A stretch of 53,601 nucleotides of DNA from positions 87,795 to 141,395 of the forward strand of contig JALHMG010000009.1 in the NCBI GenBank assembly GCA_022844135.1, written 5' to 3'. The notes under the pieces were generated by a model that saw only the letters and a program-made list of their open reading frames with translations, was not told the DNA's origin and ran no database searches. The position numbers were made by a program, and so were the translations under genes. The first letter of the stretch is position 1. Each line of letters opens with the position of its first letter. The stretch comes from Lysobacterales bacterium. GTDB lineage: Bacteria > Pseudomonadota > Gammaproteobacteria > Xanthomonadales > SZUA-5. Below, piece by piece: positions 5,089 to 16,426 of this stretch.

Positions 5089-5318
5089 CAGGGTGCTCCT
5101 TTCGCTCTTGCTTTTGTTTTAAAGAAAAAGATAGTGATGATGATGATGCTAGCGAAAACCTGTGGATAGTCTATAACTATTTGATTTTATTAACCTATTT
5201 CCTGAACCAACCTGTGGATCGCGGTGCCTGGCGTTCGGAAAAGCCTGTGGACAACTTTTCCCCACAGTATTGTCCACAGGTTCTACACAAGCATCGAAGC
5301 CTGCTTATCCTCAGGCAA
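5089..5318. other. oriC: Chromosomal replication origin (oriC) between dnaA and dnaN
   Basis: This 230-bp non-coding stretch is the only AT-rich island in the area. DnaA-box-like 9-mers (consensus TTATCCACA, either strand) occur at 5161-5169, 5213-5221, 5246-5254, 5270-5278 and 5305-5313. Most have one mismatch; 5213-5221 has two. A likely unwinding element of A/T runs covers about 5168-5205 (TATAACTATTTGATTTTATT). Position between dnaA and dnaN is the standard one in Pseudomonas and Xanthomonas relatives. The dnaN Shine-Dalgarno sequence lies at its left edge. Confidence 0.88.
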
Positions 5319-6644
5319 CTAAGCGTTCAACAGGCGTACCAGCTTCTCCCAATCATCGCGCGTCTGGCCGTCGATATCGATTTGCTTGCGCACCTCTTTG
5401 CAGGCGTGCATGACCGTCGTGTGATCGCGCCCGCCGAACGCCCGTCCAATTTCCGGCAAGCTGTGGGTGGTCAACTCCTTCGCCAGCGCCATCGCCATTT
5501 GCCTTGGGCGAACCAACGAGCGCGTGCGCTTTTTGCCCAGCAAATCGGCGAGCGGTATGCGATGAAAATCCGACACCGTCTTTTGAATGTTCGATAACGA
5601 GATCTGCGCTTCGTGGGGCCGCAGCACGTCTCGCAGTGTCGCCTGCGCGAACGGCAGGTCGACCTCATCCTTGCCGAGCAGATTGGCATGCGCGTGGAGC
5701 GTATTCAACGCCCCCTCCAGTTCGCGGACATTGGAGCGCATGCGTTTGGCGATAAAGCCCGCTACCTCATCGCTCAGAATCATACCCGCCGCTTCAGCTT
5801 TAGCGATCAAGATGGCGATGCGCGTCTCGAAATCCGGCGGCTCGACGGCGACGCTGATTCCCCAGCCGAAGCGACTCTTCAACCGCGGTTCGAGTTTCTC
5901 CAGCTCCTTTGGATAGCGATCGCAGGTCATGATGATCTGCTGTTTGCCGTCGTACAGCGCGTTGAAGGTGTGGAAGAACTCTTCCTGCGTACGATCCTTG
6001 CCCGCAAGGAACTGGATATCGTCGATCAATAGCGCATCGACCGATCGGTAGATGCGTTTGAAATAATCCATCTTGTCCTGGCGCAGCGCCTGGATCATCT
6101 CGCGAATGAATTCTTCCGAGCGCACGTACATCACCCGGGCCCGAGGATTCTGCGCTTGAATCAAATTGCCAGCGGCATGCAACAGATGCGTCTTACCCAG
6201 GCCCGTGCCGCCATACAGCAGCAGCGGGTTGTAGGCCTGTCCAGGCTTTTGCCCCACTTGCAGCGCGGTGGCGCGCGCCAACTGGTTCGACTTGCCCTCG
6301 ACGAAATTTTCGAAGGTGTAGCGAGGGTCGAGTTTCGATTCGAAAGCCTCGTCGCTGCGTGCTTTTGCTGGAACCGATGCGGCCATCGGCGGGGCCGGCG
6401 CTTCACCTTGATCCAGATCCAGCTTGACCGACGTGATCGTCGGATCCAAGGCCATCACCAGCGACGAGATCTCGCTCAAGTAAAGGCGCTGAACTTTGTC
6501 GCGCACGAAGGCGTTGGGAGCGAGCAGCACCAGCGCTTTATCTTTGCTTCGCGCAACCAAGGGCTTAAGCCAGGTCTGCACATCTTCGGCAGGCAGCGTT
6601 AACGTGAGGCGGTCGAGCGCCTTTTTCCAAGCTCGTTGGGTCAT
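5319..6644 (-). CDS. dnaA: Chromosomal replication initiator DnaA
   Basis: DnaA is the AAA+ protein that binds DnaA boxes and opens oriC. From MTQRAWKKALDRL the protein is 441 aa, the usual size. Domain I is at the N-terminus. Domain III has Walker A GGTGLGKTHLLHA and Walker B LLIDDIQFLAGK. Domain IV has the DNA-binding signature GGRDHTTVMHA near the C-terminus. The frame is open 67 codons further upstream, but that extension is arginine-rich and unlike any DnaA, so the ATG at 6644 is chosen. The upstream neighbour is not rpmH, the usual partner in gammaproteobacteria, but a divergent 3-hydroxybutyrate oligomer hydrolase gene. Confidence 0.97.
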   Translation of the reverse strand: MTQRAWKKALDRLTLTLPAEDVQTWLKPLVARSKDKALVLLAPNAFVRDKVQRLYLSEISSLVMALDPTITSVKLDLDQGEAPAPPMAASVPAKARSDEAFESKLDPRYTFENFVEGKSNQLARATALQVGQKPGQAYNPLLLYGGTGLGKTHLLHAAGNLIQAQNPRARVMYVRSEEFIREMIQALRQDKMDYFKRIYRSVDALLIDDIQFLAGKDRTQEEFFHTFNALYDGKQQIIMTCDRYPKELEKLEPRLKSRFGWGISVAVEPPDFETRIAILIAKAEAAGMILSDEVAGFIAKRMRSNVRELEGALNTLHAHANLLGKDEVDLPFAQATLRDVLRPHEAQISLSNIQKTVSDFHRIPLADLLGKKRTRSLVRPRQMAMALAKELTTHSLPEIGRAFGGRDHTTVMHACKEVRKQIDIDGQTRDDWEKLVRLLNA

Positions 6645-12266: not shown

Positions 12267-13460
12267 ATGACCCCAGAAGTCAAGGCGCGGCAGCTGATCG
12301 ACGAGAAGCTAGGGCAATCGGGCTGGGTCGTACAGGACATCAAACGAATCGACCTGGGAGCGGGTACGGGCGTCGCCGTGCGCGAATACCCGACGGATAC
12401 AGGTCCAGCCGACTATGTGCTGTTCGTCAATCGCAACGCGGTCGGCGTCATCGAAGCCAAGAAGGACACGGCAGCGGAAAACATCACCGCTGTCGAAACG
12501 CAGACCGAGCGCTATGCCACCGCCAGGCTCAAATGGCGCAAGAACAATGCGCCGCTGCGCTTTCTGTTCGAGGCCACCGGACAGATCGTTCGCTTCACCG
12601 ACAATGCAGACCCAGCGCCGCGCTCTCGCTGGGAGGCCAAGCAGCTCGCCAAGTTCCAGGAGCAAGGCAAGACGCCACCCAAGGAGTGGCAGAAAAAGTA
12701 CCCCGAGCCGGCGGAGCCGGATACCGCCGATTTGTCAGAGTTGCCCCCGGAGTGGGTTTGGGCGACGATGGATCAGCTATCTGAGTTCATTACCAGCGGG
12801 TCGCGAGGATGGGCCGACTACTATTCCGACATCGGCGCAACCTTCATTCGCTCGCAGAACATAAACAAGGATAGGCTTGATTTGACGGACATCGCATTTG
12901 TGGACCCGCCGCGTGCAGCGGAGGGCGCTAGAACGAGAGTACGCATGAATGATCTTCTGTTGACGATCACAGGCGCCAACGTTGGAAAAGCCGCCCGTGT
13001 AGATGTCGATATTGAGGAAGCGTATGTAAGTCAGCACGTTTCACTGATCCGTATCGTCGAGCCAGCCCTCTCCGACTACCTGCACCTGTTCCTTATCTCG
13101 TCCGCAGGCGGGCGGGGCCAGTTGGACAAGGAAGCATACGGCGCCGGAAAGCCGGGTCTGAATCTTCAACAGGTGGCAGCGGTGTCGGTTCCGTTACCAG
13201 GACTTCCCGAAATTCGAGCGCTGATCGAGGCGATCTCGATGATCGCCAAGGCGTCAAGCGATCAAGAGTCGGCTATCACTTCGTCCATCAGACAATCCAC
13301 CGCCCAACGCCAAAACATCCTCCGCGCCGCCTTCGCTGGCCAACTGGTGCCACAAGACCCGAACGACGAACCCGCCAGCGTGCTGCTGGCGCGTATCCGC
13401 GCCGAACGCGAGGCGACCGGTGGCAATCGCAAGCGGTCCAGGCAGCAGGCCAGCGCATGA
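12267..13460 (+). CDS. Chimeric type I restriction protein: HsdR nuclease domain fused to an HsdS half
   Basis: The 397-aa protein joins two type I subunits in one frame. Residues 1-120 match the HsdR N-terminal nuclease domain, with a PD-(D/E)XK site (PADY with Asp49; IEAKK with Glu63 and Lys65) and the usual end TDNADPAPRSR. From about residue 122 it continues as the HsdS central linker (WEAKQLAKF, GKTPPKEW, KYPEP). One target-recognition domain follows (about 160-315), then the C-terminal conserved coiled region with NILRAAFAGQLVPQDP. The HsdR helicase and translocase domains and the first HsdS recognition domain are absent. The join lies near base 12630. No Shine-Dalgarno sequence is clear. 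It is followed by a DUF1016 gene and hsdM. It could be a deletion relic or a functional minimal system with a half-HsdS dimer; the open frame argues against simple decay. Confidence 0.82.
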   Translation: MTPEVKARQLIDEKLGQSGWVVQDIKRIDLGAGTGVAVREYPTDTGPADYVLFVNRNAVGVIEAKKDTAAENITAVETQTERYATARLKWRKNNAPLRFLFEATGQIVRFTDNADPAPRSRWEAKQLAKFQEQGKTPPKEWQKKYPEPAEPDTADLSELPPEWVWATMDQLSEFITSGSRGWADYYSDIGATFIRSQNINKDRLDLTDIAFVDPPRAAEGARTRVRMNDLLLTITGANVGKAARVDVDIEEAYVSQHVSLIRIVEPALSDYLHLFLISSAGGRGQLDKEAYGAGKPGLNLQQVAAVSVPLPGLPEIRALIEAISMIAKASSDQESAITSSIRQSTAQRQNILRAAFAGQLVPQDPNDEPASVLLARIRAEREATGGNRKRSRQQASA

Positions 13461-13555
13461 GCTACGCACACCTATGAACCGGCCTCGCCGATCAGAGCTG
13501 TTTGTGGCGTGGAGTTTTCGGTGCCGGTGGGTCGGACCGGACGGGATCAGTGCAG

Positions 13556-13636
13556 AGGCATCGCGCGCAAGCGCGCTCGTGCAGAACCTGCGTGGAATTG
13601 CGGCACTTTGCAGGAGCGCGCTTGCGCGCGATGCCT
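13556..13636. repeat. REP-like inverted pair in the hsd locus
   Basis: Perfect 23-bp arms at 13556-13578 and 13614-13636 (right arm begins GAGCGCGCTTGCGCGCG) are separated by 35 bp. The arm resembles the short palindromic REP repeats of Pseudomonas and Stenotrophomonas. The surrounding 414-bp gap 13461-13874 also holds a small hairpin at 13676-13709 (CCCCTGC / GCAGGGG) and no gene. Confidence 0.75.
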
Positions 13637-13874
13637 TCGGGTTGGGAAGCACGATGGTGATTGCAGGAAAAAGAACCCCTGCGTGCATCTTTCGATGTAG
13701 AGGCAGGGGCCGTGTTGCTACCAAGCGTACGACTGCCCGCCGGAATGAGCAATCGCCGCACACTTCGCCATGCTGTTGTTGGCATCCGAGACCACATGAG
13801 CAGGTCTCTGCGAAGGCGCGAGCTACGTCTGCTCAATTACCGAGACCGCGCTGCGGCAAGGCCGGAGAATTCGC

Positions 13875-14957
13875 ATGACCAAAGCCAAATCATTGTCCAC
13901 AGCTTCTGCCATGCCCGCAGTGCAGCTTGATGCACCCGTCTTGCTGGCAGATCTGCGCGGACTGATTGAGCGGTCCCGGCAAGTGGCAGTGGCAGCCGTG
14001 AACGCGAGCCTGACCTTGATGTACTGGCGCATTGGCCAGCGCATCCGGGCCGAGGTGCTGGGTGGTGAGCGGGCCAACTATGGTGAGGAAATTGTCGCGA
14101 CGCTGTCGCGACAATTGGTGGCCGACTATGGACGTAGCTTTGAAGTGAAAAATCTCCGCCGGATGCTGCAGTTTGCAGAGCTTTTTGCCTCGGAGGAAAT
14201 TGTCGTGACGCTGTCACGACAATTGAGCTGGTCGCACGTCCTGGTACTGTTGCCGCTGAAAGACCCGCTCGCGCGGGACTTCTACGCCCAGTTGTGCAGC
14301 ATCGAGCGCTGGAGCGTGCGCACGCTGCGCGAGCGGGTGGATTCGATGCTGTTTGAGCGCACGGCGCTATCGAGAAAACCCGACGAGCTGATCCGGGTGG
14401 ACCTGGACGCCTTGCAGGCCAAAGGCGATGTGACATCGGCCCTGGTGCTGAAAGACCCGTACGTGCTCGATTTCCTGGGCCTGGACGACCGCTACCTGGA
14501 AAAGCACCTGGAAGACGCGATCCTGCGCGAGCTGGAGCACTTTCTGCTGGAGCTGGGCGCGGGCTTCAGCTTTGTGGCGCGGCAGCGGCGCATCCAGCTC
14601 GACAGCGATGATTTCTACATCGACCTGCTGTTCTACAACCGCAAGCTTCGCAGGCTGGTGGCGATCGAGCTGAAGCTCGGCGACTTCAAGGCCGAATACA
14701 AGGGTCAGATGGAACTCTACCTGCGTTGGCTGGCCAAGTACGACCAGGAGCCGGGCGACCTGCCGCCGCTGGGCATCATTCTCTGTACCGGCAAGAAGCA
14801 AGAGCAGATCGAGCTGCTGGAGTTGGACAAGTCCGGTATCCATGTGGCCGAGTACCTGACCGTGCTGCCGCCGCGCGAGGTGCTCCAGCAGAAGATCCGC
14901 GAAGCCATGGTGCAGGCGCGCGAGCGGCTCGCACAGAGGGAAACTGACTCCGAATGA
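13875..14957 (+). CDS. DUF1016 (YhcG-type) PD-(D/E)XK nuclease-family protein
   Basis: The 360-aa protein has the DUF1016 N-terminal domain (about 20-190) and the YhcG C-terminal nuclease-like domain (about 200-350). The PD-(D/E)XK-type residues are visible as Asp250 in DFYIDLLFY and Glu265-x-Lys267 in VAIELKLGDF. Such genes are often found inside type I restriction-modification loci, but their role is not established. The ATG at 13875 follows a GGAG. Its stop overlaps the hsdM start (ATGA), so the two are translationally coupled. Oddity: the sequence encoding EEIVATLSRQL (71-81) and EEIVVTLSRQL (108-118) contains two perfect 27-bp DNA palindromes 108 bp apart. Confidence 0.9.
   Translation: MTKAKSLSTASAMPAVQLDAPVLLADLRGLIERSRQVAVAAVNASLTLMYWRIGQRIRAEVLGGERANYGEEIVATLSRQLVADYGRSFEVKNLRRMLQFAELFASEEIVVTLSRQLSWSHVLVLLPLKDPLARDFYAQLCSIERWSVRTLRERVDSMLFERTALSRKPDELIRVDLDALQAKGDVTSALVLKDPYVLDFLGLDDRYLEKHLEDAILRELEHFLLELGAGFSFVARQRRIQLDSDDFYIDLLFYNRKLRRLVAIELKLGDFKAEYKGQMELYLRWLAKYDQEPGDLPPLGIILCTGKKQEQIELLELDKSGIHVAEYLTVLPPREVLQQKIREAMVQARERLAQRETDSE
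14090..14116. repeat. Palindrome 1 inside the DUF1016 gene
   Basis: Perfect hairpin: 12-base arms (AATTGTCGCGAC and its complement) around GCT. It encodes IVATLSRQL within the coding frame. Confidence 0.9.
14198..14224. repeat. Palindrome 2 inside the DUF1016 gene
   Basis: Perfect hairpin: 12-base arms (AATTGTCGTGAC and its complement) around GCT. It differs from palindrome 1 by one base in each arm, a compensatory pair that keeps full pairing. Confidence 0.9.
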
Positions 14958-16426
14958 ACACCTCCTCCCTGGTCCAGAAAGTCTGGAATTTTTGCCACAC
15001 CTTGCGCGATGACGGCGTCGGCTATGGCGACTACCTGGAGCAGCTGACGTACCTGCTGTTCCTGAAGCTGGCGCACGAGTACGCGCAGGAGCCTTACAAC
15101 CGCGACACGCACATTCCGCAGTTCTATGACTGGGCCAGCCTGACCCGCCGCGTGGGCGAGCCGCTGGAGGCGCATTACCTGGCTACGCTGCACAAACTGG
15201 GGCAGGAGCCCGGCATGCTGGGGGCGATCTTCTTCAAGGCGCAGAACAAGATCCAGGACCCGGCCAAGCTCTCGCGTCTGGTGCAAATGATCGACGCCGA
15301 GAACTGGATCAGCCTGGATGCCGACACCAAGGGCGATCTGTACGAGGGCCTGCTGCAGAAGAACGCCGAGGACACCAAGAGCGGCGCGGGCCAGTACTTC
15401 ACCCCGCGCGCGCTGATCGAGGCGATGGTGGCCTGCGTAAGGCCGGAGCCGATGAAGACCATTGCCGATCCGGCCTGCGGCACCGGCGGCTTCTTTCTCG
15501 GCGCCTACAACTGGTTGACTCGCCCCGGCGCGCAACTGGACAAACGCCAGAAGGAATTTCTGCGCAGGCAGACCTTCCAGGGGAACGAGATCGTCCCCAA
15601 CACCCGCCGCATGTGCTTGATGAACCTGTTCCTGCACAACATCGGTGATCTCGACGGCGAACCTTTGGTGGAGCGCTCGGACGCCCTGATCTCCGAGCCG
15701 CGGCGCAAGGTCGACTACGTGCTGGCCAACCCGCCCTTCGGCAAGAAGAGCAGCATGACCTTTACCAACGAAGAGGGCGAGCAGGACAAAGATGCGCTCA
15801 CCTACGAGCGACAGGACTTCTGGGAGACCACATCGAACAAGCAGCTCAACTTCCTGCAGCACATCGTCAGCATGCTGAAGGTGGACGGCAAGGCTGCGGT
15901 CGTGCTGCCCGACAACGTGCTGTTCGAAGGCGGCGCCGGCGAAAAGATCCGTCGCAAGCTGCTGGAAAACTGCGATGTCCACACCATCCTGCGACTGCCC
16001 ACCGGGATCTTCTACGCGCAGGGTGTGAAAGCCAATGTCGTGTTCTTCGACGCCAAGCCCAAAGGCGGTCAGATCCACACCAAAGGTGTGTGGTTCTACG
16101 ATTTGCGCACCAACAAACACTTTACCCTGAAGACGCGCCCGTTGAGACTGGACGACCTCCAGGATTTCGTCACCCGCTACAACCCCGACAACCGCCACGA
16201 GCGCATCGCCAGCGAGCGCTTCAAGTACTACAGCTACGAAGAACTGGTGGCCCGCGACAAGGCCAGCCTCGACATCTTTTGGCTCAAAGACCAAAGCCTA
16301 GACAACCTCGACGATCTGCCGCCGCCGGATGTCCTGCAGCAGGAGATCATCGAGCACCTGGAAGCGGCGTTGCTGGCGTTTCGTGATGTGGCTGCCAGTC
16401 TGCCCAAATCAACCGCCGCGAGTTAA
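14954..16426 (+). CDS. hsdM: Type I restriction-modification methyltransferase subunit HsdM
   Basis: HsdM is the adenine-N6 methyltransferase subunit that acts with HsdS. The 490 aa are full length. The N-terminal helical domain covers about 1-140. The SAM-binding motif DPACGTGGFFLGAY begins at 172. The catalytic motif NPPFG is at 259-263. Both are intact, so methylation looks possible if an HsdS dimer can form. The start overlaps the DUF1016 stop by four bases. The only specificity element in the window is the half HsdS fused to the HsdR nuclease domain (12267-13460). No complete hsdR is present. Confidence 0.96.
   Translation: MNTSSLVQKVWNFCHTLRDDGVGYGDYLEQLTYLLFLKLAHEYAQEPYNRDTHIPQFYDWASLTRRVGEPLEAHYLATLHKLGQEPGMLGAIFFKAQNKIQDPAKLSRLVQMIDAENWISLDADTKGDLYEGLLQKNAEDTKSGAGQYFTPRALIEAMVACVRPEPMKTIADPACGTGGFFLGAYNWLTRPGAQLDKRQKEFLRRQTFQGNEIVPNTRRMCLMNLFLHNIGDLDGEPLVERSDALISEPRRKVDYVLANPPFGKKSSMTFTNEEGEQDKDALTYERQDFWETTSNKQLNFLQHIVSMLKVDGKAAVVLPDNVLFEGGAGEKIRRKLLENCDVHTILRLPTGIFYAQGVKANVVFFDAKPKGGQIHTKGVWFYDLRTNKHFTLKTRPLRLDDLQDFVTRYNPDNRHERIASERFKYYSYEELVARDKASLDIFWLKDQSLDNLDDLPPPDVLQQEIIEHLEAALLAFRDVAASLPKSTAAS

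What the first reader, a model, noticed from the sequence alone, without database searches (positions are those of the whole stretch)
12267..16426. HsdR-nuclease/HsdS-half chimera with DUF1016 protein and intact HsdM: a possible minimal restriction system
Seen: one open frame joins an HsdR N-terminal nuclease domain (Asp49, Glu63, Lys65 intact) to the HsdS central linker, one recognition domain and the C-terminal conserved region. The helicase motor and the first recognition domain are missing, and no other hsdR is in the window. HsdM keeps DPACGTGG and NPPFG. Known: half-size HsdS proteins can dimerise and work. Inference: the join at a shared RWE-like position near base 12630 points to a deletion between hsdR and hsdS that stayed in frame. 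It may produce a nuclease attached to a specificity subunit, similar in idea to type IIB/IIG enzymes, with a DUF1016 partner.
Basis: partly seen in the sequence, partly recalled or inferred. Interest (0 to 1): 0.8.

Follow-up and report, generated by a model that had tools for sequence, protein, structure and literature searches.

The report
Deletion-fused type I restriction gene
A roughly 3-kb deletion has welded the DNA-cutting tip of one restriction-enzyme gene onto half of the DNA-recognising gene, most likely leaving the bacterium with a broken restriction system that at best still marks DNA, although the product has the shape that has been proposed as a step in how simpler restriction enzymes evolved.

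Summary
One frame (12267-13460, 397 aa) joins HsdR residues 1-121 to the HsdS linker, second recognition domain and C-terminal helix; the Arg121 codon (12627-12629) is shared. All 19 nuclease and 23 HsdS residues found invariant in aligned relatives are kept. hsdM and a DUF1016 gene follow, both open.

Relatives show an ordinary type I operon with EcoEI-like hsdR: hsdR, hsdS, a variable cargo gene, hsdM. About 3 kb is gone: the motor, HsdR C-terminus and first recognition domain. The missing hsdR part is not elsewhere in the assembly. The join was found in no other genome, plasmid or viral contig that I could inspect (searches were capped). An Aquabacterium carries a decayed hsdR'-hsdS'-DUF1016 remnant. 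DUF1016 is one of several cargo genes, not a specific partner.

Best reading: a recent, restriction-dead deletion derivative that might still methylate a palindromic site through a dimerised half-HsdS. Ten published nuclease-HsdM fusions did not restrict. A working nuclease/half-HsdS enzyme is not excluded (about 8%); it would match an intermediate proposed by Bower et al. 2018 for type IIP enzymes.

The parts
12267..12629 (+). HsdR N-terminal PD-(D/E)XK nuclease part, residues 1-121; Asp49, Glu63, Lys65, plus Gln79/Tyr83
   Evidence: 74-79% identical to the hsdR of L032-L035, L037, L039, L048; 19 of 19 tested invariant residues kept; model residues 1-117 align to HsdR fragment 3h1t, Z 10.4, rmsd 2.4, 97 aligned
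12627..12629 (+). Join: Arg codon shared by HsdR (PRSR|EIF) and HsdS (RRAR|WEAK)
   Evidence: DNA of 12 hsdR and 11 hsdS relatives printed and compared by eye; position computed
12630..13460 (+). HsdS second half: central linker, second target recognition domain, C-terminal conserved helix, stop
   Evidence: 74% and 70% identical to HsdS of L031 and L032; 23 of 23 residues invariant in 23 relatives kept; residues 159-348 align to the second half of PacII S (7vru_C), Z 18.5, rmsd 3.4, 186 aligned
13461..13874 (+). Spacer between fusion stop and DUF1016 with a 28-nt inverted repeat (13556-13583 / 13609-13636); GCATGA occurs at both edges, while in L031 and L085 the hsdS stop overlaps the DUF1016 start
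   Evidence: no second copy of the spacer or of its 19-nt hairpin core in the assembly
13875..14957 (+). DUF1016 (YhcG-type, predicted PD-(D/E)XK) protein, 360 aa, open
   Evidence: Pfam DUF1016_N and YhcG_C; PADLOC PDC-S02
14954..16426 (+). hsdM, 490 aa, open
   Evidence: Pfam N6_Mtase and HsdM_N; 81-91% identical to HsdM of 10 relatives compared over the first 483 residues

Best explanation
A type I locus with an EcoEI-like hsdR (order hsdR-hsdS-DUF1016-hsdM) suffered one deletion of about 3 kb, from hsdR codon 121 to the Arg codon at the end of the hsdS central conserved region, at a few matching bases, and happened to stay in frame (shown by comparison with relatives). Because the helicase motor and the HsdR C-terminal domain are gone (shown), ATP-driven translocation and classical type I restriction from this locus are lost (inferred from family knowledge). 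What is left is HsdM plus a half-HsdS carrying a nuclease domain. Two copies could dimerise through the C-terminal helix and, with two HsdM, methylate a palindromic bipartite site, as a C-terminal half-HsdS of EcoDXXI does (inferred, about one chance in three). The attached nuclease most likely does nothing (inferred). The fusion is probably recent, which explains its undamaged frame (inferred).
For: Eight relatives, L032-L035, L037, L040, L044 and L045, have separate frames of 927-973 aa (hsdR) and 510-651 aa (hsdS); the missing stretch is 3.1 kb in L034, from hit coordinates. In L034, HsdR carries ResIII, Helicase_C and EcoEI_R_C, HsdS carries Methylase_S. The HsdR remainder has no close match elsewhere in the assembly: the best is 30% identical, inside another 1137-aa HsdR frame. 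Of 110 loci searched, only the window's own two (L007, L008) have an N-part and an S-part match in one frame. L085 (Aquabacterium humicola) is a separate hsdR'-hsdS'-DUF1016 remnant, lacking the Lys of ExK and with the two parts in different frames. L031 (Thiocapsa) has the same gene order with hsdR and hsdM each matched in two pieces. The ratio of HsdR-part to HsdM divergence is the highest of 11 loci (1.99; others 1.47-1.85), a weak sign of relaxed constraint. Ten HsdR-nuclease/HsdM fusions had no restriction while recovered phage were modified; the authors caution that complexes that had lost the nuclease may have done the modifying (PMC6158711 section 15). A C-terminal half-HsdS homodimer works in EcoDXXI (PMC3874165 section 26).
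Against: The frame is clean over 397 codons and all 42 tested invariant residues are kept. Under simulated neutral substitution (no indels modelled) this becomes unlikely beyond about 0.02-0.03 substitutions per site (6.6% and 1.7% of 1000 runs each), so selection on the fused protein is possible. The cut falls after the nuclease core strand 108-112 of an intact relative; a 3-residue strand (121-123) and two helices (129-137, 142-149) beyond it are lost, so the nuclease may still fold. The review states that half-HsdS homodimers had been reported only in type IC, which weakens the methylation step.
Confidence: 0.8

Rival explanations
1. A working minimal restriction system: two nuclease/half-HsdS chains with two HsdM methylate a palindromic site and cut unmethylated DNA near it without ATP, like a type IIB enzyme with the nuclease moved from M to S.
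For: Nuclease residues kept, both halves fold in the model (mean pLDDT 84.7), clean frame, open hsdM. Bower et al. suggest that a nuclease fused to a half-HsdS gave rise to homodimeric type IIP enzymes (passage).
Against: Same join seen in no other genome examined; ten related nuclease-HsdM fusions did not restrict; HsdR-part divergence relative to HsdM is the highest of 11.
Confidence: 0.08
2. Pure pseudogene, a sub-case of the best explanation and overlapping with it: the fusion protein is not made or does not assemble, and hsdM is an idle leftover.
For: Decayed cousins L085 and L031; short or broken hsdR remnants elsewhere, e.g. L018 and L171. The 414-bp spacer replaces the stop/start overlap with DUF1016 seen in L031 and L085.
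Against: hsdM is open and 81-91% identical to relatives; half-HsdS proteins are known to work in other systems.
Confidence: 0.5
3. Assembly error joining two ends of an intact operon.
For: Draft genome in 75 contigs; no reads available.
Against: The join lies well inside contig C9 (about position 100,420; the window alone spans 87,795-141,395); the hsdR part that would be missing has no close match in the 99.83%-complete assembly; only two or three bases match in register at the join (by eye).
Confidence: 0.04

Closest known systems
Type I restriction-modification systems with EcoEI-like HsdR (hsdR-hsdS-cargo-hsdM)
   Same: Same HsdR nuclease, HsdS second half and HsdM; same gene order
   Different: No motor, no HsdR C-terminus, no first recognition domain; R and S parts on one chain
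Truncated HsdS homodimers (EcoDXXI, EcoR124I delta50, NgoAV; PMC3874165 section 26)
   Same: One recognition domain plus one conserved helix; the EcoDXXI N-terminal deletion is the direct parallel
   Different: Type IC, with no nuclease domain on the HsdS chain as described there
Type IIB enzymes (BcgI; RM subunit plus S subunit, PMC3874165 passage)
   Same: Nuclease tied to the methyltransferase/specificity core, a trimmed-down type I enzyme
   Different: There the nuclease is on the M chain and, from general knowledge, S has two recognition domains; here the nuclease is on a half S chain
Engineered nuclease-HsdM fusions and M-half-S constructs of Bower et al. 2018 (PMC6158711; abstract, 12 passages and section 15 seen)
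   Same: HsdR nuclease taken off the motor and fused to another subunit; half-HsdS
   Different: Engineered, nuclease fused to HsdM rather than HsdS, restriction-inactive; their half-HsdS is the N-terminal half
Hsd remnant of Aquabacterium humicola (L085)
   Same: hsdR start next to hsdS end, followed by an 82% identical DUF1016 gene
   Different: Nuclease motif cut, parts in different frames, no hsdM hit in the 16.6-kb locus

Membership tests
Type I R-M system | HsdM with DPACGTGG/NPPF motifs | tested here: met
Type I R-M system | HsdS with two target recognition domains | tested here: not met
   Only the second half is present
Type I R-M system | HsdR with SF2 motor and C-terminal domain | tested here: not met
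   Absent from the locus; no close match to the remainder elsewhere in the assembly
Functional half-HsdS | One complete recognition domain plus conserved helix | tested here: met
   Residues 152-353 align to the 196-residue chain Esub1 (8vsq_A, Z 16.4, rmsd 4.3, 194 aligned) and 159-348 to the second half of PacII S
Functional half-HsdS | Dimer with HsdM methylating a palindromic site | not testable with these tools
   Needs methylome or protein work
HsdR nuclease | PD-(D/E)XK core with Asp, Glu-x-Lys and Gln-x-x-x-Tyr | tested here: met
Type IIB/IIG enzyme | Nuclease and methyltransferase on one chain | tested here: not met
   HsdM is a separate gene
Type IIB/IIG enzyme | ATP-independent cutting at a fixed distance | not testable with these tools
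   Biochemistry needed
Conserved new system | Same R-S join retained in independent genomes | tested here: inconclusive

The most novel reading that the evidence does not exclude
The fusion is a natural, working nuclease/half-HsdS protein that, with HsdM, forms an ATP-independent restriction-modification enzyme with a palindromic target: a living example of the step from type I to homodimeric type II enzymes that Bower et al. proposed.
Probability: 0.08. Interest if true: 0.75.

Novelty: new variant of a known kind. Interest (0 to 1): 0.33.

Why it matters
If only a scar, it shows how one deletion can turn a type I locus into a potential lone methyltransferase with a changed, palindromic target. 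If active, it would supply the nuclease/half-HsdS arrangement that Bower et al. proposed as an ancestor of some type IIP enzymes, with a natural crossover point to compare with their engineered fusions.

Tried and rejected
Searched for the same join in relatives (151 genomes, own included), genome contigs, plasmids (40 of 126 records listed), viral contigs and 398 + 369 overlapping genomes of the phylum and class with the nuclease part. All 13 matches there in frames under 750 aa were fetched and checked: hsdR cut by contig ends, frameshifts or decay, none in one frame with hsdS. Junction-crossing matches to L038 (1-136) and L045 (1-156) and to L111/L112 (1-150) were BLAST over-extension: HsdR continues normally there. 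L041, L042, L081 and L090, whose matches start at residues 59-67, have no nuclease part in the same frame (L042 and L090 have no N hit). Three Rhodococcus plasmid rows covering 47-364 at 23% are labelled subunit S and were not taken as fusions.

Short HSDR_N frames of the order (whose match list was cut) were fetched for 11 places. One search showed the HsdR frame for 8 of them (stand-alone nuclease proteins or truncated hsdR, read by eye, no hsdS part recognised); for L147, L149 and L152 it printed another frame and they were not examined further.

Considered MADS (NF047738, NF047740): far below the curated cut-offs. Alignments A1 and A3 were dropped because the identities showed that hsdS rows had misaligned. 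Looked for the empty site in a same-genus genome: the two flanking genes lie on different contigs there, so nothing was learned. In the VIA-align list the nuclease part is covered by few rows, so families not listed are not excluded. Literature: one search searched four R-S fusion terms; 23 papers matched, and the 20 listed all matched by the string HsdRS alone. Most subscription papers are not in that library.

Full report
What is there. The frame 12267-13460 (+) codes for 397 aa. Pfam sees HSDR_N at 44-116 (25.6 bits, cut-off 25.1); the best PADLOC type I specificity model covers 119-387 (E 6.8e-51). Downstream lie a DUF1016/YhcG protein (13875-14957) and hsdM (14954-16426). The genome has 7 HSDR_N matches in all, of which the fusion scores lowest.

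The ancestor. With 30 earlier loci these were searched again separately with the nuclease part and the S part. Eight close relatives (L032-L035, L037, L040, L044, L045) have separate stop-to-stop frames of 927-973 aa for hsdR and 510-651 aa for hsdS; hsdM was matched downstream in seven of the eight, not in L037. In L034 the HsdR shows ResIII, Helicase_C and EcoEI_R_C and the HsdS shows Methylase_S, so the closest relatives are type I systems with an EcoEI-like HsdR. Printed side by side, hsdR mostly reads PRSR|E(I/V)F and hsdS RRAR|WEAKQL; the window reads PRSR|WEAKQL. The shared Arg is residue 121, codon 12627-12629. Relative to L034 the deletion spans about 3.1 kb. By eye, two or three bases match in register at the crossover, which fits illegitimate recombination; staying in frame is a one-in-three event.

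What was kept. The 19 residues up to position 83 that are invariant in 34 HsdR relatives are all kept, and all 23 residues invariant in 23 HsdS relatives. Of positions conserved in at least 90% of those HsdS rows, 38 of 39 are kept, within the range of the relatives themselves. AlphaFold on an intact HsdR N-terminus gives core strands up to 108-112, then a 3-residue strand at 121-123 and helices at 129-137 and 142-149, so the cut lies near the edge of the nuclease fold. The model of the fusion (mean pLDDT 84.7, pTM 0.60) aligns over 1-117 to the V. vulnificus HsdR fragment 3h1t (Z 10.4, rmsd 2.4, 97 aligned) and over 159-348 to the second half of PacII S (Z 18.5, rmsd 3.4, 186 aligned). The placement of the two halves relative to each other is not established.

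What was lost. No close copy of the HsdR remainder exists in the assembly; the best match is 30% identical inside the 1137-aa HsdR frame of another type I locus on contig C36. That locus has its own hsdS, hsdM (42% identical to the window's) and DUF1016, so cross-complementation is unlikely (inference) and untested.

Is it a system? The same join was seen nowhere else: not in the match rows for 151 relatives (own included), not in the 80 genome-contig loci, not in the viral contigs (31 loci; the 5 with a nuclease-part match were checked, and the others match only from residue 105 on), and not among nuclease-part hits in 398 and 369 genomes (18 and 32 with a match at E 1e-12, own genome included), whose 13 frames under 750 aa were inspected. 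These samples overlap, and metagenomes could not be searched. L085 (Aquabacterium humicola) is a decayed parallel: an hsdR start lacking the Lys of ExK, next to the hsdS end in another frame, directly followed by a DUF1016 gene 82% identical to the window's, with no hsdM hit. That its deletions are independent is inferred from their different end points. L031 (Thiocapsa imhoffii) has the window's gene order, with hsdR and hsdM each matched in two pieces.

DUF1016. Among 33 hand-picked hsdS-to-hsdM gaps, only L031, L053 (a fragment) and L059 hold a DUF1016 match at E 1e-8. Seven gap genes checked by Pfam are DUF1016 (L031), Fic (L032), AlbA_2/Schlafen (L033, L045), AAA (L034), GmrSD (L070) and RhuM-Fic (L077). 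Five of the 33 gaps are under 20 bp. The slot holds interchangeable cargo, so nothing ties DUF1016 to the fusion.

Selection. Mean amino-acid difference of the nuclease part divided by that of HsdM is 1.99 for the window, the highest of 11 loci (others 1.47-1.85): a weak hint of relaxed constraint, not tested for significance. Against this, simulated neutral substitution keeps the frame and all 42 invariant residues in 23.6% of 1000 runs at 0.01, 6.6% at 0.02 and 1.7% at 0.03 substitutions per site (indels not modelled). So the fusion is either recent or selected; the data do not decide.

Function. [quoted passage not shown] Section 26 of that review (read) reports that an EcoDXXI HsdS with its N-terminus deleted still works, with a palindrome of the C-terminal specificity, and that such homodimers were known only for type IC. 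Bower et al. (PMC6158711; abstract, 12 of 35 passages and section 15 seen) tested ten HsdR-nuclease/HsdM fusions: none restricted, and recovered phage were modified, though the authors could not exclude that assemblies without the nuclease domain did this. The same paper suggests a nuclease fused to a half-HsdS as an ancestor of homodimeric type IIP enzymes (passage). The window holds that domain arrangement, apparently made in one step, though probably as an accident.

Verdict. A confirmed and unusual in-frame fusion whose origin as a deletion is well supported. It is most likely restriction-dead, possibly still a methyltransferase with changed specificity.

Noticed in passing
window 13461-13874: 414-bp spacer with a 28-nt inverted repeat (96% complementary, 25 nt between the arms) and GCATGA at both edges; in L031 and L085 the hsdS stop overlaps the DUF1016 start, so this looks like an insertion. 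No second copy in the assembly.
   Followed up: partly
window 14085-14117 and 14193-14225: Inside the DUF1016 gene, two 33-nt direct repeats each contain a palindrome (TTGTCGCGACGCTGTCGCGACAA and TTGTCGTGACGCTGTCACGACAA); one similar palindrome lies in the DUF1016 gene of L085 and one near the DUF1016 fragment of L053. Possibly a regulator site or a coding constraint.
   Followed up: partly
own genome contig C36 (L009-L011): A second type I locus in the same genome also carries a DUF1016 gene beside hsdS (35.6% identical to the window's), with a 1137-aa HsdR frame nearby.
   Followed up: no
L171 (G939) 273-464 and 5266-6600: Another truncated hsdR start (83-aa frame) about 4.8 kb upstream of an hsdM 63% identical to the window's.
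   Followed up: no
L111/L112, IMG/VR contigs: A complete hsdR and hsdS pair of this subfamily sits on two contigs binned as viral, near frames that look like lysis genes by eye (no family search made); could be phage-carried or a prophage edge.
   Followed up: no
own genome contig C47:41403-41930 (L003): A 327-aa frame with a near-complete HSDR_N match is followed in another frame by a RecG/AlbA-like tail, judged by eye: perhaps another decayed or recoded defence gene.
   Followed up: no
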